From Tilletia caries (Eukaryota > Basidiomycota > Exobasidiomycetes > Tilletiales > Tilletiaceae): 64,000 nucleotides of DNA. This document shows positions 46,513 to 61,065 of this stretch, one piece after another. Each line of letters opens with the position of its first letter. Position 1 is the first letter of the stretch. The stretch lies in the NCBI GenBank assembly GCA_032718865.1, contig JALUTQ010000038.1, positions 806,001-870,000 on the forward strand. The letters are read 5' to 3'. The position numbers and the translations under genes were made by a program. The notes under the pieces were generated by a model. It ran no database searches. It was not told the origin of the DNA and worked only from the letters and a program-made list of their open reading frames with translations.

Positions 46513-49500
46513 ATGTCACGCTCGCTGAACCAGGAAGGGCGTCGCGATCCCCTACCAAGACGACGGCTCACGTTTGGTGAGCCAGACAACGCTCAGCCCA
46601 TCAGCCAGGCGGACTCTCTGGAGGTGAGTACAAGCTCCTCTCGTTCCTGTGTGGTGTGCACGCGTGTGATGCTGATCCTGGTCGGTTCATCTATCCGTTC
46701 AGGTATTGGACAACCATGCATCAATACGGAACGGTTTGGAATCTCCCTTTGTGCAGGTCGAACAGCCCACAGCCCCAAGACGGGCTCGCACACGCAGAAG
46801 AACAAGATCCAATAGACCGCCTAGCCTCGACTTGGCTTGCTCCGCGGCCAGTGGGAGCGATTCGGAATATGGGTCTTCCATTAATTTGGAGCTCAAGAAC
46901 TCCGCCGGGTTCTATACCAATCGACCCCGGTCAAGCACATCCTCTTCGACGGAGTTTGAGCACAGCTGGCTACCTCCGCCCTCGCCCACGGTCAGGTTTA
47001 TCGAAGGAGTGGCATCGGCGCTGCCACCGCCTCCCTCACCACAGGTTGTTACTGCCAAGCCGACGTTTGCCGTCCTCCTTGACATCGCGAGCCGCAGAGA
47101 CTTGATTCTCATCGGGATACCGGCCGCTGTGTGTGCTGTTGGCTCCGGACTCGTTCCGGCCGCTCTTACCCAAATCCTTCGAGAAGCGTTCGACGCGTTC
47201 GCGAAGTTCAACCCGAGCGGAGAACCCATCAATGCCGTACCTGAGGAAGCGAAGAAAGTCCTGAAGCACGCCATAGCTACGGTCGTATGGCAGCTCGTGC
47301 TCTTGGCCGTGGCCACCCTGGTCCTCAACCTGATCTCGATGACGGCATGGACGTCTTTGGGCGAGCGGACGGCTTCCAGGGCGCGTACGGATTGCTACAC
47401 GGCCATCTCTGAGAAGGACATTGCCTGGTTTGACCAGGGCATGGTCCAGGACACGGAGTCAGACCAGAAGGAGGCAGGTCAAAGTGCAGCTGGTCTCGCG
47501 ACGAAATTCTCAAGGTACGTTTTGTGCGCCATACTTGTCTCCCTCCTGCCAATGTTGGGTCATCCTAACGTTTCTGAGCGTTGCTTATGCAGAGATGCGG
47601 ACGACGTTCGATATGCGTACGCGAGCTCGTTCGGGAATTTGTTGCGCTTTCTCACAACGACGGTCACCGCGTTCATCCTCGCTTTCGTGCACTCATGGAA
47701 GCTGGCGTTCGTCACCCTCGCCGCCGTTCCACTTGCTGCTCTTCTGACCGGCTTCTGCGAGCGCGCGAGTGGTCCGTTGATTCATGCCGAGCAAAACGCA
47801 CTCTCCGAAGCAGGCCGACTGGTTCAGGAAACTGTAACCTCTATCACGGCAGTCAAGGCTTTTAATGGGCAGAAGAGGGAGTTCAGCCGACTTCGCGCAG
47901 TACTGCAACAGAGCAGCCAGGCTTGGAACCGCACCAGTCTGGTCTGGAGTCTACGTTCAGGTCTTGCTTCATCAATGATGCTCGCCATGTTCGTCCAGGG
48001 CTTTTGGTACGGCTCTCACCTCGTGCAGACTGGACAAGCATCCGCAGGAATCGTTATGACCGTCTTTTGGTCTTGCCTCCTGGTAACCACGAGCACGGAG
48101 CAAGCTCTTCGCGCCATGCTGCCGTTGCAGAAGGGCAAGATCGCGGCAGCCAATATTCGCACGATGTGCATCATTCAACCTTCCAGCACATATACGACGA
48201 GCCGAAGCGTTCTTATTAACGATCCACCCACACTTTGGCGCCGGCTAGCCTTGAGATGGCGACAGCCTGAGTTTAGCTCCCCTCGTACCACCGCTATGCC
48301 CATCGACGCGATTCCACACGCAACAACGCCATCTACCCCGGTCAACAAAACGCTTTCGCCTGAACAAGCGTCCGCTCTGAGCCTCAGTCCACGAAGCCTG
48401 AAACGATCCAAATCGACTCGCGTCGCTGCGATGCGCAAGATTCGGCCGGCAAAAGCCTGCAGTGGGGAGGTCTCTTTTCGTTCAGTGGCTTTTGCATATC
48501 CTTCAAGACCAGGTGTGCTAGCGCTGACCAACGCCGACATGTTCTTCCCATCCGGCGAGACAACTTTTGTCGTCGGCGGCAGCGGCAGTGGCAAAAGCAC
48601 GATCGGCAGCTTGCTCTTGAGATTGTACAAGCCATTGAGCGGTGAAATTTACATCGACAACAACAACATCGGCTTCTTGGACCCACACTGGTGTCTGGAG
48701 AATATCCTGGTCTTGTCTCAATCCCCGGTACTCTTCGACATGTCCATTCACGACAACATTGCGATTGGAAGGACGGCACGAGCCAGGCAATCCGGCGAGG
48801 TCGACCCGGAGACAGGAATCCCCACCGTATCGAGAGAGGACGTAATCTCTGCCAGTCGGACTGCGCTCCTTCACGAGTTTGTGATCTCGCTTCCCGACGG
48901 CTACGATACAATCCTCGGCAGCAAAGGGTTGAATCTTAGCGGCGGTCAGAAGCAGCGGCTTTCTATCGCACGCGCCCGTCTCTGTGATCCTACGATTCTC
49001 GTGCTCGACGAGTCGACCTCAGCACTTGATCAAACGTCCCGATTGCTGGTTCATGAAGCAGTCAGGACGTGGCGGGCAAGATCGACCACCATCATCATCA
49101 CGCACGACCTCACCCAAATCGGAGCGGATGACTACACCTATGTCATGGAGAACGGCCGGATCGTCGAGAACGGGTACCGACGCAATATCGAGAGGCAAAG
49201 GGACGGTAAACTACGCGCCCTTCTGAAAGCGCAGGCTCAAAGCATCTCGACTCTCGCCGTCAGCGATCCCATTAGTTCCGAAACTCCCACAAGTCCAACC
49301 GGCCTGGAAGCCCAAGCTTCCCTGTCACTCGCCCAGGTCTTGGAACAAGGCGCAAATGGTGACCACGAGTTGGAAAGGTCTGCCATGTTCGGGACTGTCG
49401 GAGGACTGAGTCTTCGACCCCTTTCTGTCGCCTTCGATCCGTCGGCGCCTGCCATCGGCCGTGGACGGCGGAGCCTTCATCTGAACTGGATCCAGGGACG

Positions 49501-51538
49501 CAATGCGGCGAAACGGTCGACGCAGGGGAGAGGGTATCTTGCCACTGAGGCAGAATGGTTGGACAGGGCCGGTAGAGCGGCAGCCCTCGGACGCCAGAAC
49601 AATCGTAGGAGAGCACTGAGTGAGAAGACAGCCTTACAGCAGATTGCGACGAACGATCAGGCACATCTCGAGAAAATCCCGCAGGAACAAGCTCCCTCAA
49701 CAACCTTTGCCGCCATTTCGCGCCGAGCATGGACAAAACAACAGAAGAAGGCTCTTACCGTGCTCGGGCTCTTCGCTTGCATAGTCTCAGGATGCACGAT
49801 GCCGATCTTCTCCTACTTCCTGGCTCGGCTTCTCGCGACGATGACTGCGACGGGACAAAATTCGCAGGTGCGCAGGTTCGCCATACTCACACTTCTGCTC
49901 GCCATCTTGGACGGTGTCTGCGTCTTCCTGCGGCAATTCGTGATGGAGACGGTCGCCGAGCTCTGGGTTCGGCATCTTCGAGAAGAGGCATACGATCGGG
50001 TGTTGAAGCAAAGCATGGCATGGTTCCATCTGCCGGACAACCAGGCGGAGCGAGTATCTCATTGCATCGTCCGGGACGGGGAAGATGCTAGAGATCTTGT
50101 CGGTCAGATCTGGGGCCAGCTGCTGGCCATCGCGGCTATGATCGTCGTCGCGTTCATGTGGGCCATCATCGTCGGCTGGCAGCTGACCTTCGTCGGCCTG
50201 GCCTTCGTGCCGCTCTTCGGTGGTGTCGTGTATTTGCAGAGCCGCGCTCTTGCACGCAAGGAGACCACCAACAAGGCAAAGCGCGATGCGGTGACGAAGC
50301 GATTCTTCGACATGACGGCCAACATCCGAGCCATCCGGTCGATGGCGCTGGACCAGATCTTCATGTGCAGATTTGCAGCGGTGGACCAGGAGACACTGCG
50401 GAGTGGGATCCGGACTGGGCCCATCCTGGGTCTTGGAGTCGGCTTGGCGGAGGCTATGACCTATCTGGCGGAAGCAGTGCTTTTCTACGTGGGCACGATT
50501 CTCATCGTCGAAGGCCACTACACCTTCGAGCGCATGATCGTCGTCTTCAACCTGATGGTCTTCGCTGTCACATTCTCATCACAGATGCTTGCGGGCCTGC
50601 CGGGAGTCGCCAAAGCGTCACAGGCGGTCACGAGTCTGGAACGCCTCGTTCTCTTGCCTTCGGAGACCGAAGAAGCTGTCGGCACTGCGAAAGCTCGGTT
50701 GGATGGTGGGATCGAGTTCGACAATGTCAGCTTCCGCTACAACGAGTCCCGAGCGCCCGTCCTCAAGCAGATCTCGTTCAAGGTGCAGCCGGGCGAAACA
50801 GTTGCCATTGTTGGCGCTTCCGGGTGCGGCAAATCAACGATTGCAAGTCTCCTGCAGCGCTTATACGAGCCTACCTCTGGTTCGATCAAGATTGCTGGGA
50901 TTCCGATCGATGCTCTAGACGTTGGCTGGCTGCGCGAACACCTTGCGATTGTTTCACAGTCGCCGACGCTGTTCAACATGTCGATGTCCGAGAACATCTC
51001 GTACGGTGCCAACGGCTTCCCCACTTCCGTCTTGACGTCGGCATGGGATGACTCCAATCGGCGAGAGCACCAAGTACAGACGGCGGCAGAGTGGGCCCAG
51101 ATGGACAAGACGATTCGGAAGCTCCCAGCTGGCTACGAGACGCGACTTGGCGATGAAGGCTCGCAGCTATCAGGCGGTCAAGCCCAGCGAATTGCGATCG
51201 CGCGAGCGCTGATGCGAGAGCACGCCAAGGTGCTCATCCTCGACGAGTTTACGTCTGCCTTGGATCGCAGCAAGCAAGCGGAGTTCATCGACCTGCTCGT
51301 CCTTCGACAGCACAAAGCCTACGCCGAGAAGCCTACCGCATTCGGCCGATGGTTCAACGCAGCCGACGTGAGCGCGGTTGTGGTGACGCACAACTTGGAG
51401 GTGATGCAGCGGTGCGATCGCATCCTGGTCCTATCCGAAGGTCGGATCGTGCAAAGTGGGCCTTATGAACAGCTGATGGCTGTCAACGGCCGGTTCGCAA
51501 CGCTTGCTCGCGGAGGAGAGTGGAACGAAAGCACATAG
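46513..51538 (+). CDS. Full-length ABC-B transporter (MDR/Ste6 type)
   Basis: Exons 46513-46623, 46703-47514 and 47593-51538 give 1622 residues in the order TMD-NBD-TMD-NBD. NBD1: GGSGSGKST (Walker A), LSGGQKQRLSIARA (signature), ILVLDESTSALD (Walker B), IITHD (switch His). NBD2: GASGCGKST, LSGGQAQRIAIARAL, VLILDEFTSALD, VVVTHN. A Ser/Arg-rich N-terminal cytosolic region of about 140 residues and a 150-residue linker after NBD1 are present. Both nucleotide sites look competent. Family members export hydrophobic drugs or, in the Ste6 branch, farnesylated pheromone; the divergent TMD and an insertion between Walker B and the switch His in NBD2 (RQHKAYAEKPTAFGRWFN) hint at Ste6, but this is inference. 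The second intron is 78 nt and stays open if retained. Confidence 0.9.
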
Positions 51539-52995: not shown

Positions 52996-55900
52996 ATGGC
53001 TGCCAACGAGTCGCTGCCTCATACGGAGGTGCTCTCGCGCATCTTCAGCAAGCTCAAGAGCGAGTGAGTCTTCCCTTTGTCCTGTCCACCGATTCGTGGC
53101 AGCCACGCATACGCATCAATACTGATGGCTATTCGCATCCTCTTCTGCCTTCAGACAGCCATCCATTCGTCGCAGCGCAAGCTTAGAGCTTCGCAAATAC
53201 GTGAGCGCTCCCCAGTCGCGCAGGCAAAACGTTGATAAACCTCTATCTGACCTCCTTTGTCTCCGCCCTTTTCTCGCAGGTTAAACAAGTTCCTGCCGAG
53301 TTCCGTCTCGATCCCCTCTCAGCTTTCAACAATGATCTCACCATGCGCACGGTGGGCATGTCGCATGCCGCCGGTGTCACCGAGAAGCTGGGCGGAATCG
53401 CGGCTATAGGTGAGTAACCATTGCTCACGACGAATGAGCTGTGGCGCCGAAAAGCTCGCGGACATGACTGACTTCTATTTGTGACTTGATTCCGTAGAGC
53501 AACTGGTTCACGTGGACATGGGATCCGGTGACGAATCCAAGCGATACCTTTACCGCCTGTATCAATTGTTGCGTCACAACCTCCCATCAAACAGCGCGGA
53601 AGTCATGACGCAGGCTTCAAAGGCACTTGGTGTGTGCTTTCCGCGTCATTTTTGAGCTCTGCTCCCTCCCAAGCTGCTAACCCTCTTTCCTTTAATCAAG
53701 GTATGATCGTACAAATTGCGGGACCGACCTTCACCGACCAATTCATGGAGATGGAGACACATAGAGCCTTGGATCTTCTGAGTGGTCAGTCCGTCCCAAA
53801 GCGTGGTCCAATATATATATTCCGCGCTGACTAGCTTCATTCGAGATCATCACAGCTCGCGACGAGTTTGGGCGCTACGCAGCAGTTTGCATCATTCGAG
53901 AGCTAGCCTCTAGCGTGCCGAATCTGCTCTACCCATTCGTCCCTCGCATTTTGGACCATCGCATTTGGTCTGCACTACGGGATACAAAGGTAGGTGACCT
54001 AGGATCGTAATCACCTTTGACGTGCCATACTCACTCCAAATACTCACTTACAGTTACAAATACGGGAAGCTGCTGCTCGCGCCCTCGGTGCCTGTCTGAA
54101 AATACTGTCCGGCAGATCCAAGACACTTGATTCCTATGTGCCCGGCAGCGTTTGGAAGGAGGCCTACGAAGGGCTCATCGTGCAGAAGACAGCGTTTCTT
54201 CCGGCACCCGAGGCGATTCACGGCAACCTACTCGCTGTGCAGCAACTCTGCTTTCACTCCCGCGCATTCATGGAAGACCATCTTGATGAAGCGTGCGATG
54301 CTATCATTCCGCTTCACCGGAGTCGCGACTTGCAGATTCGGAGAACAGTGGTCAGCGACCTCATCCCGGGATTGGCAAGGTGCGATCCAATCTTGTTCAA
54401 AGAGCGGCTCCATGGCGTTATAACAGCATTAATCGATCAAATGAGGAAGGATAAGGGAGACAGAGAGACGTGGGAGCAATGTGAGTCTCTACTTTCTTCT
54501 ACACAGATCGATCCGAAGACAGAGTAGCTAAAGGAAGTATATCTGCACTTCAATAGCCTTCAAAGCCATCGGACTCCTCGCCTCCATCATGCGAGGAGGT
54601 ATCGAACCTTACGCCCGAATCATCGTTTCAAGCCTGAAGGAAGGTTTCCTGATGCGTGGCAAGAAGAATGCACCTTTCGAGGCATACATGTTCGGATGCA
54701 TCAGCAATCTTGCCATCGCGTTAGGCGAGCGTCTGATTTATTCAGCGGAATTGCTGCGCTTGATGCTGACGTGCCCAATCAGCGCCGAGCTGGTCGATGC
54801 TTTGGAAAAGATGGTCGATTCCGACGGATCGCTGAAGCCCAGAGTACAAGGTGGGTGTCAATCCGACTCGGGTACCTCCGACACGTGTAAGACTCACGGA
54901 GTATTATCTCTTTACACAGACCGCCTCCTCGACCATATCGCATTGGTCTTGATCAAAAAGCCGGAAGGCAGCGCGGTGTCACCCCCTCGGTCAAGACGGG
55001 GATCCCGCGATTCTGCATCACCAGAGATCGTTGAAGATACTGGAGCTATCGTCATTGCCCTAAACACCTTAGGCTCCTTCGATTTCAATGGTGAGCGCTC
55101 ATATGGTTTGCGTCTTACCTTCTGGATGATCTGACAAGCACTGATGGCGGAACCTTTTACTTGTAGGACATATGCTCAGCAACTTCGTAAGGTCGTGTAC
55201 GCTACCGCACTTGAAGCACGAAAACGTAGAGGTGCGCAAGGCAGCAGCGGTCAGCTGTGCCAAATGGTTCAGCCAGGATCCGATTTCTTGCTCGGACAGC
55301 ATCCACGCAATCGAGGTTGTAAATGATGTTCTAGACCAGCTTGTCGCGGTCGCGATTGCAGATCCAGGTGAGATCGACACTGGTGACTCCGAACGTATCT
55401 CCTGAAGCTGATCGTCCTACCTTCACCGTTGCTGCCCAACCAGATCCCATACTGCGCTGCACCGTTTTACAGCACCTCACAGGATTTGATCATCACCTCG
55501 CCCAGGATGAACATGTGCGGTCTATTTTCATCGCCCTGAACGATGAAGTTTTCGACGTCCGCCGCGTGGCCGCCTCGATGATCGGCCGACTTGCGCAAGA
55601 GATGCCCTCCGTCGTCATGCCACAGTTGCGGAAAGCTTTAATACGACTGCTGACAGAGTTGGACTACGCAGTGCTCAAGTAAGTGCTATTTGTTCTCCAG
55701 TTATTATGGCACTCCTGACCATGTGACGCATCTTTGTTTTGTCAGTCGGAGAAAAAGGGAAGCGACGAAGCTACTCACAGAGCTTTTGAGATCGTCTCAG
55801 CACCTACTCAAGTGGTATGTTCTCCCGATACTCCACGTCCTACTACCCAAGGCCAGAGACGAGGATGCCCGTGTGGCCGCGCGCGCGATCGAGTGTCTTG

Positions 55901-58900
55901 GAGAGCTTGCCAAGATCGGAGGCGACGACCTTTCCAAGTCCGTGAAGGACATAATCGCGCTCGTAGTCGATGAACTGAACGCGAACACGACAGCCGGCAG
56001 TACTTCTAAGCGTGATGCCGCCTTGCGAACGCTGGGGCTTGTTGTGTCCAATTGTGGATACGAGGAAAATCCTTATCTGCAACATCGCGCGCTGTTGGGC
56101 AACCTCATCAAGATCCTCCGAACGGAGCAGGCACCCGAGATCAGAAGGGAATCGATACGGGTGATGGGAGTGCTGGGAGCCCTTGATCCTTTTCGGTACA
56201 AAGTAAGTAGTACTCATTGGATCTTGCTACTTGTTCCTGAATGCTGAACACTGCTTGGGGCTGATTGACCGTTTTCTCCTGAAGCTCCTTGATCGATCGT
56301 CGGACGACAGCACACGGGAAGGAGCGAAGGACGGCAGCGTTGACTTATTCGAGCTTGCGATGATGGCAGGCCCAACATCTGATGAATATTGTCAAAACGT
56401 GGCGGTCGAGGAGTTATTAAAGGTGCTCAGGGACAGCGCCTTGACTGCACATCACTACCTAGCCATCGAGGGCTTGACCTACATGTTCCAGACGCAGGGT
56501 CTGAAGTGTGCCAACTTTTTGCCTCAAGTGAGTTCGACGAGACTTCTTCAGGGCTATTGGGGCACATTGCTTATCAAAGATTCGTCCCTCCCTTCAGGTT
56601 ATACCTGCCTTCTTGCACGTCATTCAAACCTGTCCAGCCGCACATGCCGAGTCGTACTACCCAAAACTTGCTCAACTGGTGGGTTTCATCAAGCAGCACA
56701 TCCGAAACTACCTGCCCCAGGTCTTCGCTTTAATCAAGGACAAATGGACGGCGACTCCGAATGCTCAAGGGCCTATTGTGGACCTCATCCAAGCGCTGGC
56801 CAAGTCGCTCCAAGGAGAATTCAAGGCGTACCTCCCACAAGTGCTACCGGACATGATCCAGACATTGGAGGCCGACGTGGCGTCACGGCGCGAGGCGGCT
56901 ATGCGAAAAATCCTGGACACCTTTGCTGTGTTGGGAGCCAATCTCGAGGATTATCTCCAGTTGGTCTTGCCTGCCATCGCTCAAGTGCTGGAGCATCCAG
57001 ATGCTGCGATCAAGCTCCGGATTGCTGCTGCTCAGACACTCGGCACGTTGGCAAGAAGGCTGAACATTTGCGATCATGCGTCTCAGGTGATTCAACCTCT
57101 GCTTCGTAGCCTCGGCTCCGGTCCCCCGGAGCTGCAGTCATCCATCTTGGACACGCTCACCGTCATCGGCGCGCAGCTTGGTGATACCTTCAAAATCTTC
57201 GTTCCAATCATCAACAAAGTCATTGCTCATCAAGACGTCCGGCATGAGCGTTACGAGCGACTATCTACCAGGGCTCTTCAAGGGATTCGAATCACTCCAG
57301 ATCTAGCGGGTCCTGACCCTGCCATCGCTGCCAAAGTGTCTGAGGCTCCTGTCGCGGATCTACCGCAATTGCAGGTGAACGAACGAGTTCTCAAGCAGGC
57401 CTGGGACACTTCCAACGTCTCCACTGCAGAGGACTGGCGGGAGTGGCTTCGAAGAATAGCAGTAGAGTTCTTGCGCGAGTCGCCATCGCATGGGCTTCGC
57501 GCCTGTAGAACGTTGGCCGAGAATCACCAGCCAGTCGCCCTCGCGCTATTCAACGCGGCATTCACCTCATGCTTCAAGCTGCTCGAGGACAGCTGCCAAG
57601 CCAATGTACTCAAAGCGATCGAGACCGCGCTTCATGCGCCAGATACTCCCGATCAAGTCGTCGCCACCCTGCTCAACTTGGCCGAACATGCCGAACATGA
57701 TTCAAAAGGTATGGCCATCGATGCGAAGGTGCTAGGCGACTGCGCGCTCAAGTACGGATTGTATGCCAAGGCAATACATTACAAGGAAACCGAGTACTTC
57801 CAGCAACCCTCGTCCAAAATCCTCGAATCCCTGATCGACATCAATACCAAGCTACAGAATATCGATGCCGCCCAGGGCGCACTCCAGTTGGCTGAGGACG
57901 ATTATCAGGTTAAGGACCATCAAGAATGGTTCGAGAAGTTGCACAGGTGGGAAGACGCTCTTCATGCCTACGACGAAAAACTCAGGATCAAGCCCGACAG
58001 TTGGACCTCCAACTTTGGGCGAATGCGATGCTTGCACGCACTGGGCGAGTGGGAGCAGCTGTCCAATCTGGTGCATGACCGGTGGACCAACCCAGGTGTA
58101 CGAGAGGACCAGCTCAACAAGATGGCTCCGTTGGCCGCTGCGGCGGCTTGGTCACTCGGTCACTGGGACAGGATGGACGATTACATCGGCGCGATGCGGA
58201 GCGACTCGTCGGAGCGGTCATTCTACCGTGCTCTCGGATATGTGCATCGCGCCCAGGCCGACCAGGCACAGAAGCAGATCGATCGCGCCCGTGACCACCT
58301 CGACATGGAGCTCAGCAGTGCTTTCAACGAGAGCTATGGGCGAGCGTACAGCCTCATTGTGCGGACCCAGATGTTGTCCGAGCTGGAGGAGGCGCTTGCG
58401 TACAAGACCACGTTCAGGGATCAACGGGACCGACAGGCGAGCATCCGATCGATGTGGATGAAGCGTCTGGAGATGTGCCAGCCCGAGGTAGATGTCTGGC
58501 AGCGCATCTTGTCGGTCCGGAGCATCGTGCTCACCCCAGAAGAGGACGTCGATTCGTGGATCAAGTTTGCCAATCTCTGTCGCATATCGGGACGTATGGT
58601 CTTGGCTCAGAAGACGATCAACTCTCTACTAGGCGTTGACCAGACGGGCCAGAGCTACGTGGACGAGCACGCTCCGCCACCGGTGATCTATGCTCATCTC
58701 AAGTTCAGCTGGGCACACGGATTCAAGGAGGAGAGCTTGCTCTATCTCCGCGAATTCACCAAGAATCTGGCAATCGATCTTGGCCTTGGTCCACGAGAGG
58801 ATGGTACGACAGGATCAGATGACTGGAATCCGCCAGTAATTCAACAGAAGGACGCTCGACTTCTGGCCCGCTGCTTCTTCAAGCAAGCACAATGGCAGGT

Positions 58901-61065
58901 GGAACGCAACAAAGCTTGGGTCACGGACAGGGACTGCGACGTAATCGGGTCATACTGGCGTGCGACCCAGCTTGACCAGACCTGGTACAAACCATGGCAC
59001 GCTTGGGCGCTCGCGAATTTTGAGATCATCACGTATCAAGAACAGCACGGCGGAGCGAAACAGCTGATGGAAGCCAGCATCGTACCAGCCATCGAGGGCT
59101 TCTTCCGCTCCATTGCTCTCGCCGAGGGCAGCGCTTTGCAAGACATTCTCCGCCTCTTGACTTTGTGGTTCAAGTTTGGTGATCAAGTCAACGTCGATGA
59201 GGTGGTTCGGGAAGGATTGCGGACGATTTCAATCGACACTTGGCTCGGGGTGATTCCTCAAATCGTCGCGCGCTTTGACAATCCGAGCGAGAGGGTGCGG
59301 GGTCTCATCCACGTGCTCATGTGCGAGCTCGGCAAAGTCCATCCGCAAGCGCTGGTGTATGCCCTGGGTGTGGCATCCAAGTCACCGTTGCCGTTGCGGG
59401 CGAAGGTTGCCGACGACATCATGCAAGAGATCCGCAAGCACTCCTCGGATCTTGTCGAACAGACCGAGGTCGTTACACGGGAGCTTATTCGCGTTGCCAT
59501 TCTTTGGCACGAGATGTGGGCCGAAGCTCTGGGAGAAACGGAGAAACTTGAGGCAGACGCCGTATTGGCGCTCTTACACCCACTGCAAGAACTTCTGGAG
59601 CATGGCGCCGAAACTTTGACGGAGGTCTCCTTCACTCAGGCTTTTGGTCGGGCGCTGTGCGATGCGTGGAGCTGTGCTATACGATACCAGCGCTACGGTC
59701 AGATCGCTGACCTCGACCAGGCTCGAGATCTTTATCATGCCGTCCGATGCAAGATCCAGAAACAATTGCCGCTGATCACGGGACCGCGGCTCGAATTGCA
59801 GGAGTGCTCTCCACGCCTACTTGAGGCCTTCAGCCTGGATCTCGCCGTTCCTGGCACGTACGATGTCGGCAAGCCTCTCATCACGATCCGTCAGTTTGAA
59901 CCAACTGTGAGAGTCTTGACATCGAAGCAGCGGCCCCGGCAGATGAAGCTGCGTGGGAGCGATGGGCGAACGTACCAGTACCTCCTCAAGGGCCACGAGG
60001 ATACACGACAGGACGAGCGCGTGATGCAGCTGTTCGGCCTGGTCAATACGCTGCTTTCAAACGATACGGAGTGCCACAAGCGCCGACTCGACATCCGACG
60101 CTATGCCATCATTCCGCTCTCCCCGAATGCCGGTATGATCCACTGGGTCGAGGACACAGACACGATGCACGTATTGATCAAAGAGTATCGAGAGCAGGAG
60201 AAGATTTTGCTCAACATCGAGCATCGTCTGATGCTGCAGATGGCACCCGACTATGAGCATTTGACGCTGCTACAGAAGGTTGAGGTGTTCCAATACGCCC
60301 TCGACAACACCAAAGGTCAAGACTTATATCGGACACTCTGGCTCAAGTCCAGAAATTCGGAGGTCTGGCTGGAGCGAAGAACGACCTACACCCGGTCGAT
60401 TGGGACAGCCAGCATGACTGGGTACATCCTTGGCCTTGGAGATCGCCACCCGAGCAATCTGCTCTTCCATCGAATCACCGGCCAGATCGTGAACATCGAC
60501 TTTGGCGACTGTTTCGAGTTTGCCACTATGCGTCCGATGTACCCAGAACGAGTCCCGTTCCGACTGACACGGATGCTGATCAACGCGATGGAAGTCGGGG
60601 GTCTGAAGGGTACATTCAAGATTACTTCGGAACATGTGATGCGCGTTCTTCGCAAGAACAAGGAGAGCGTACTGGCCGTCTTGGAAGCGTTCGTCCTCGA
60701 CCCGCTCATCACATGGAAGATGTTGGCGCCCGAGACGAGGCCGGAAGGGGACGAGACGAGCAAGTACGTCACGGCTGCCGCGGGTGAGCGGCACGCACGG
60801 CAAGACGGAGGCCGGCGCGTGGATCGAGTGGCGGAGATCATGAATCGACTGCAGAGCAAACTCGAAGGTCGTGACTTTGACCCCGCTCAAGAGCTCGCGG
60901 TGCCGGAACAAGTTGAGAAGCTGGTGGCAGAGGCGACGTCCGTTTTCAATTTGGCACCCTCTTTCCTGGGTTGGTGCAGCTTCTGTAAGTCGATTACCGC
61001 TTCCGCCGCCCACCGTTTTCCGGACGCATCCCAGACTGACATTTTGATCCTTGCTTACAGGGTGA
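52996..61065 (+). CDS. TOR kinase (PI3K-related) with divergent FRB domain
   Basis: Fifteen exons: 52996-53063, 53155-53200, 53280-53409, 53498-53629, 53701-53784, 53856-53989, 54054-54480, 54557-54850, 54920-55090, 55167-55367, 55444-55678, 55746-56202, 56285-56527, 56598-60984, 61061-61065; 2337 residues. N-terminal HEAT repeats (GGIAAIEQLVHVDMG, EAAARALGACLKI) lead to the FAT domain in the long exon, then FRB (about 1835-1935, starting ILWHEMW), then the kinase: GHEDTRQDERVMQLF, ILLNIEHRLMLQMAPDYEHL, GLGDRHPSNLL (about 2155) and IDFGDCFE (about 2174), so catalysis should be intact. FATC ends in FLGWCSFW, where the last Trp and the stop are encoded by a 5-nt exon. In FRB the residues that contact FKBP-rapamycin are replaced and the first loop is shortened. 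It may be the cell's TOR or a second, TOR-like paralogue. Confidence 0.93.

What the first reader, a model, noticed from the sequence alone, without database searches (positions are those of the whole stretch)
59485..59775. TOR kinase whose FRB domain lacks the rapamycin-binding residues
Aligning the FRB to human mTOR by eye: after ILWHEMW the family has L-E-E-A-S-R-L-Y-F; here it is L-G-E-T-E-K-L followed by a 5-residue deletion, so the position equivalent to Ser2035 is Glu and the Phe2039 position is lost. At the other end, the family W-D-L-Y-Y-H-V-F is R-D-L-Y-H-A-V-R, so Trp2101, Tyr2105 and Phe2108 equivalents are Arg, His and Arg. The kinase (GDRHPSN, IDFGDCFE) and FATC (GWCSFW) are intact. 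The prediction is an active TOR that cannot bind FKBP12-rapamycin: either a dedicated TOR-like paralogue (as with Tlk1 in Cryptococcus) or an intrinsically resistant species.
Basis: partly seen in the sequence, partly recalled or inferred. Interest (0 to 1): 0.78.

Follow-up and report, generated by a model that had tools for sequence, protein, structure and literature searches.

The report
Rapamycin-blind second TOR kinase in Tilletia
A wheat-bunt type fungus carries two copies of the growth-control kinase TOR side by side; one keeps the site that the drug rapamycin needs, while the other looks like a working kinase that has lost that site, which makes it a natural test of what the site does for the cell.

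Summary
The window encodes a full-length TOR (52996-61065, 2337 aa, no stop or frameshift) whose FRB has Glu for Ser2035, a 5-residue deletion removing Phe2039, and Arg/His/Arg for Trp2101/Tyr2105/Phe2108. Ser2035, Trp2101 and Phe2108 are invariant in 155 of 155 reference TORs.

It is a paralogue. A second TOR with a canonical FRB lies about 9 kb beyond, tail-to-tail; no third was found. A T. laevis protein is identical to the canonical copy over 801 aa, so the organism is a Tilletia of the bunt group. T. horrida has both kinds too: its divergent copy has a same-size deletion and loses the same positions, mostly to other residues.

Constraint separates the domains: of conserved columns the divergent copy lost 8 of 32 in the FRB but 2 of 139 in kinase+FATC. 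Ectopic gene conversion has homogenised parts of FAT and kinase within each species; most of the FRB shows none.

Best reading: an active TOR isoform blind to FKBP12-rapamycin and without FRB substrate docking, possibly TORC2-dedicated. Activity, drug blindness and complex membership are inferred. Slow decay is the main rival.

The parts
52996..61065 (+). divergent TOR gene, 2337 aa, 13 introns before 56600 plus one in the last codon
   Evidence: spliced alignment to T. horrida TORs, start codon, last intron
59481..59762 (+). FRB domain with altered rapamycin-binding face
   Evidence: PF08771
59541..59543 (+). Glu codon at the Ser2035 position
59549..59550 (+). junction where five residues (Tyr2038, Phe2039 and neighbours) are missing
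   Evidence: same size in T. horrida P0004
59724..59747 (+). RDLYHAVR: Arg, His, Arg at the Trp2101, Tyr2105, Phe2108 positions
60438..60515 (+). intact catalytic loop (GDRHPSN) and IDFGDCF motif
60894..61065 (+). FATC with a 76-base intron (60985-61060) inside the last Trp codon
57945..58544 (+). main gene-conversion tract (codons 1324-1523), shared with the canonical copy
   Evidence: pS 0.00-0.16 per 40 codons, runs, tree
59268..59519 (+). converted tract ending inside FRB helix 1 (codons 1765-1848)
   Evidence: pS 0.23-0.39; tree leans to species pairing
59988..60227 (+). partly converted kinase tract (codons 2005-2084)
   Evidence: pS 0.27-0.29
60348..60467 (+). weaker low-pS kinase stretch (codons 2125-2164)
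   Evidence: pS 0.42

Best explanation
It is the second member of an old Tilletia TOR gene pair: a full-length, probably catalytically competent TOR whose FRB is predicted to fold as usual but no longer presents the aromatic groove that binds FKBP12-rapamycin, phosphatidic acid and substrate helices. Kinase and FAT stay like the canonical copy through purifying selection and ectopic gene conversion, while the FRB and the N-terminal HEAT solenoid have diverged. I infer that the canonical copy serves TORC1 with FRB-docked substrates and rapamycin sensitivity, and that the divergent copy works where FRB docking is not used. The likeliest such place is TORC2, where Avo3/Rictor covers the FRB. Shown: sequence, pairing, conservation, conversion. 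Predicted: fold. Inferred: activity, drug blindness, complex.
For: Two TOR genes found in the genome. Contact residues lost in the divergent copies of both species, kept in the four canonical Tilletia TORs. At columns at least 95% conserved in 155 references and unchanged in those four, the window copy lost 8 of 32 in FRB against 2 of 139 in kinase+FATC (p=2.3e-5); T. horrida P0004 also 8 of 32 and 2 of 139. Outside conversion tracts: 8 of 23 against 2 of 85 (p=4.7e-5), P0004 8 of 23 against 1 of 85 (p=1.1e-5). dN 0.165 and dS 1.17 between the copies, ratio about 0.14, with dS near saturation. The N-HEAT tree joins the two divergent copies (AU p 0.0003 and 6e-7 for the species pairings), while codons 1324-1523 pair the copies by species (AU p 1.6e-5 for paralogue class). 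FRB model mean pLDDT 82; 0.8 A over 89 residues to mTOR FRB chain 5wbh_E. One Raptor and one Rictor gene. Passages: Avo3 occludes the FRB in TORC2 (PMC5700991); the FRB docks TORC1 substrates (PMC7464330); an N-terminal region of about 500 residues steers TORC1 or TORC2 assembly in yeast (PMC6023025, abstract and section 2.4).
Against: No expression, activity or binding data. The divergent copies evolve fast in N-HEAT too (branches 0.39 and 0.43 against 0.07 and 0.03), so relative branch lengths do not single out the FRB. The FRB tree alone favours paralogue class only weakly (AU 0.81 against 0.19). At the five lost positions the two species differ at four (the fifth is deleted in both), so no new conserved surface is seen. 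The structure model rests on an alignment with canonical FRBs. Nothing direct supports TORC2.
Confidence: 0.6

Rival explanations
1. A slowly decaying duplicate: the divergent copy is under relaxed constraint and its FAT and kinase look healthy partly because gene conversion keeps copying them from the canonical gene.
For: General acceleration, N-HEAT included; different residues in the two species at the lost sites; conversion tracts in FAT and kinase; a F. oxysporum TOR paralogue is dispensable for growth (PMC8435236 passages); no T. maclaganii divergent copy seen in the listed hits.
Against: Open over 2336 codons in the window and full-length in T. horrida, although the duplication is older than their split; conserved kinase+FATC columns outside conversion tracts are kept, 83 of 85 and 84 of 85; dN/dS about 0.14.
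Confidence: 0.25
2. Target-site bypass: the FRB was lost under selection by rapamycin-type macrolides of soil actinomycetes, giving a TOR that keeps working in their presence.
For: The lost residues are those named for drug and lipid binding (PMC2997006 passages); F. oxysporum strains with an extra TOR were less rapamycin-sensitive (PMC6001611 passages); two FKBP12-like genes.
Against: The canonical copy keeps the drug site; N-HEAT diverged as well; one substitution would be enough for resistance.
Confidence: 0.12
3. Assembly or base-calling error in the FRB codons.
For: None found.
Against: T. horrida P0004 lacks the same number of residues at the same place and the same functional positions; the frame is open on both sides.
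Confidence: 0.01

Closest known systems
S. cerevisiae TOR1/TOR2 and S. pombe tor1/tor2 pairs
   Same: Two full-length TOR paralogues; in S. cerevisiae they divide TORC1 and TORC2.
   Different: The FRB residues are reported conserved in all fungal species compared by Shertz et al. (PMC2997006 passages).
Fusarium oxysporum lineage-specific TOR paralogues
   Same: Extra TOR in plant-pathogenic fungi.
   Different: On average 95.9% identical to the core TOR, sharing a kinase-domain change, some truncated; the passages seen report no FRB loss (PMC6001611; PMC8435236).
Trypanosomatid TOR4
   Same: A TOR paralogue that does not offer the rapamycin-binding domain.
   Different: TOR4 is said to lack the FRB domain (PMC3160303 passage); here the domain is present by profile and only its face is changed.
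Cryptococcus neoformans Tlk1
   Same: Second TOR-like kinase in a basidiomycete.
   Different: Not compared here; one passage says it is dispensable (PMC7596385).
Allomyces macrogynus possible second TOR
   Same: A fungal TOR duplicate with an abnormal FRB, read by its authors as perhaps a copy being lost.
   Different: There the FRB appears to overlap the kinase domain (PMC2997006 passage); here domain order is normal and the domain is five residues short.

Membership tests
TOR kinase (PIKK) | FAT, FRB, PI3/PI4-type kinase and FATC domains in this order | tested here: met
   PF02259, PF08771, PF00454 and PF02260 over cut-off in P0001; best solved match by sequence is yeast-type TOR2
TOR kinase (PIKK) | N-terminal HEAT solenoid | tested here: met
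   window 52996-56700 aligns along its length with T. horrida TORs; mTOR_dom matches in P0004; the window's own N-terminal part was not scanned with Pfam
TOR kinase (PIKK) | catalytic loop and metal-binding motif | tested here: met
   GDRHPSN and IDFGDCF present
Rapamycin-sensitive TOR | Ser2035, Phe2039, Trp2101, Tyr2105 and Phe2108 equivalents | tested here: not met
   Glu, deleted, Arg, His, Arg
Rapamycin-sensitive TOR | binds FKBP12-rapamycin | not testable with these tools
   needs a binding assay
FRB-less TOR (trypanosomatid TOR4 type) | FRB domain absent | tested here: not met
   FRB present by profile and predicted fold
TORC2-dedicated TOR (yeast Tor2 type) | stable association with Avo3/Rictor, not Kog1/Raptor | not testable with these tools
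   one gene for each partner found in the genome

The most novel reading that the evidence does not exclude
Tilletia keeps a natural separation-of-function TOR: selection plus recurrent gene conversion hold the FAT and kinase of two neighbouring TOR genes alike, while the FRB groove of one has been given up for good, so the fungus runs one TOR with and one without FRB docking, the latter probably committed to TORC2.
Probability: 0.33. Interest if true: 0.75.

Novelty: new variant of a known kind. Interest (0 to 1): 0.6.

Why it matters
Ser2035, Trp2101 and Phe2108 are invariant in 155 of 155 reference TORs here, and a survey of fungal TORs called them conserved in every species examined (PMC2997006 passages). 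They are kept although rapamycin is not a normal ligand, so their native job (lipid binding, substrate docking, complex control) is a real question. A kept, apparently active TOR that has dropped them beside one that has not lets that question be tested by comparing two natural proteins. It also suggests that FRB-directed inhibitors may leave part of TOR output untouched in these smuts.

Tried and rejected
Assembly error: rejected because T. horrida P0004 has a same-size deletion at the same place. Only TOR of a resistant species: rejected, a canonical copy was found. A third TOR in this genome: none found; other hits on C4, C32 and C28 are short and 24-50% identical and are taken as other PIKK-type kinases, which was not tested.

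The FRB as the fastest domain: not borne out; N-HEAT branches are about as long. Only the loss of conserved sites singles out the FRB. Conversion avoiding the FRB more than chance: not tested; many other stretches are unconverted too, and nine conserved FRB columns at its start lie in a converted tract. Selection against conversion there is therefore not claimed as shown.

A model of FRB+kinase+FATC (556 aa) had mean pLDDT 60.6 and was poor over the kinase; the FRB was modelled alone. Canonical FRBs are in its alignment, so the fold is a consistency check only.

A divergent-copy protein of T. laevis, T. caries or T. controversa was not among the listed hits of three protein searches (120 of 631, 120 of 1798 and 23 of 23 listed); poor gene models could explain this. 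For T. maclaganii only a canonical copy was listed. The tail-to-tail order in T. horrida could not be seen; only that P0004 and P0006 both list a contig of 56,327 bases.

Print: searches (listings only: the top titles and abstract openings) showed no report of a Tilletia TOR pair or of gene conversion between TOR genes; the library lacks most subscription papers.

Full report
What is there. The window is C33:806001-870000 of a 38.1 Mb genome in 40 contigs. The TOR gene starts at an ATG at 52996, has 13 introns found by spliced alignment to T. horrida TORs and a fourteenth inside the last codon (60985-61060), and ends at 61065. It gives 2337 residues without a stop or frameshift. FAT, FRB, kinase and FATC pass Pfam cut-offs; the best solved relative by sequence is a TOR2 chain.

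The FRB. Of 212 proteins held, 155 non-Tilletia TORs of 2000-2700 aa served as references. They are top-ranked hits of FRB-centred searches whose lists were cut at 120, so TORs with unusual FRBs are under-sampled. Ser2035, Trp2101 and Phe2108 are invariant, 155 of 155; in the window they are Glu, Arg and Arg. The Phe2039 column is aromatic in 155 of 155 and deleted here; Tyr2105 is His; Leu2031 is kept. Human numbering is by motif and recalled. Roles in rapamycin resistance (yeast S1975, W2041, F2048) and phosphatidic-acid binding (L1971, F1979, Y2045) are from passages of PMC2997006, which states that all six are conserved in the fungi examined.

The neighbour. The FRB profile gives two hits in the genome: the window's (86 bits) and one at C33:877249-877545 on the other strand (140 bits). 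A full-length TOR search finds only these two TOR genes. The second gene (residues 1-2350 at C33:883930-876028) has a canonical FRB. The two are tail-to-tail, about 9 kb between stop codons, and 75% identical in protein. The canonical protein is identical over 801 of 801 residues to T. laevis CF336_g4763 (P0190), so the organism belongs to the T. laevis / T. caries / T. controversa group. A published T. caries assembly is of similar size (38.18 Mb, 46 contigs; PMC10684912 passages); which species this is was not settled.

Elsewhere in Tilletia. T. horrida proteins include P0004, with a divergent FRB, and P0006, with a canonical one, both listed with a contig of 56,327 bases, so probably on the same contig. 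P0004 also has 15 residues where references have 20, and Leu, deletion, Gln, Arg, Tyr at the five lost positions. The same positions were lost but mostly carry other residues. P0003 (T. horrida) and P0005 (T. maclaganii) are canonical.

Conservation by domain. At columns at least 95% conserved in the references and unchanged in all four canonical Tilletia TORs, the window copy lost 8 of 32 in the FRB, 2 of 139 in kinase+FATC, 4 of 124 in FAT, 2 of 24 in M-HEAT and 5 of 64 in N-HEAT; P0004 lost 8, 2, 3, 1 and 8 of the same. FRB against kinase p=2.3e-5 in both; FRB against the rest p=9e-5 and 1.4e-4. Thresholds of 90% and 99% point the same way. By branch length, however, N-HEAT of the divergent copies is as fast as the FRB.

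Gene conversion. Between the window's two genes synonymous differences are near saturation over most of the length (pS about 0.5-0.9 per 40 codons), but pS is 0.00-0.16 over codons 1324-1523 and 0.22-0.42 over 964-1003, 1124-1163, 1564-1603, 1765-1848, 2005-2084 and 2125-2164. Identical runs of 135, 113 and 107 bases exceed the longest run of 2000 shuffles of codons among amino-acid-identical positions (maximum 84); the fourth run (59) was reached in 15 of 2000. Trees: N-HEAT joins divergent with divergent (AU p 0.0003 and 6e-7 for the two species-pair topologies); codons 1324-1523 pair the two copies of each species, in both species (AU p 1.6e-5 for paralogue class). M-HEAT, unconverted FAT and both kinase segments do not decide; the FRB segment leans to paralogue class (AU 0.81 against 0.19) and the stretch just before it leans to species pairing (AU 0.038 for paralogue class). 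So the duplication is older than the split of the two lineages, and parts have since been homogenised within each. The tract before the FRB ends within helix 1, at ILWHEMW.

Is kinase upkeep only a by-product of conversion? It seems not: outside the tracts 2 of 85 conserved kinase+FATC columns are lost in the window copy and 1 of 85 in P0004, against 8 of 23 FRB columns in each (p=4.7e-5 and 1.1e-5). IDFGDCF lies outside the tracts; GDRHPSN lies inside one.

Structure. AlphaFold2 of the divergent FRB alone has mean pLDDT 82; it aligns to 5wbh_E at 0.8 A over 89 residues and to 1fap_B at 1.1 A over 90. Canonical FRBs are in its alignment, so this is a consistency check. The groove residues change from aromatic to mostly charged.

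Mechanism. FKBP12-rapamycin, phosphatidic acid and amphipathic helices of TORC1 substrates are reported to use the FRB (PMC2997006 and PMC7464330 passages). In TORC2 the FRB is covered by Avo3/Rictor and substrates come through Avo1/Sin1 (PMC5700991 and PMC7464330 passages). An N-terminal region steers TORC1 or TORC2 assembly in yeast (PMC6023025, abstract and section 2.4). A copy that changes N-HEAT and FRB but keeps FAT, kinase and FATC fits work without FRB docking; TORC2 is the likeliest home, by inference. One Raptor and one Rictor gene were found. Two FKBP12-like genes are present, so the canonical copy should still be a rapamycin target.

Limits. No expression, binding or activity data; no DNA of other Tilletia, hence no between-species dN/dS of the divergent copy; divergent copies from two species only. 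Decay with partial rescue by conversion remains the main rival.

Noticed in passing
G000 C1:2281653-2281940 and C1:2285006-2285306, minus strand (L010-L012, L014): Two FKBP12-like genes 3.4 kb apart, both ending ..YGARG.PPVIPPNATL.FEVELLKI* (named by motif): rapamycin's receptor also looks duplicated.
   Followed up: partly
protein P0003 (T. horrida, contig 158,415 bases): A canonical-FRB TOR that in the first window of 60 residues is only 27% like P0006: a third TOR of T. horrida, or a TOR of another species under that name.
   Followed up: no
window 57945-58544 (codons 1324-1523 of the TOR gene): The same FAT stretch pairs by species in T. horrida too: possibly a recurrent conversion hot spot.
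   Followed up: partly
protein P0190 (T. laevis): The T. laevis record found for the canonical TOR is an 801-residue truncated model; no divergent TOR of this group was listed among the protein hits.
   Followed up: no
window 46676-51538: Long open frame that looks like a full-size ABC (multidrug-type) transporter about 1.5 kb upstream of the divergent TOR; named by eye.
   Followed up: no
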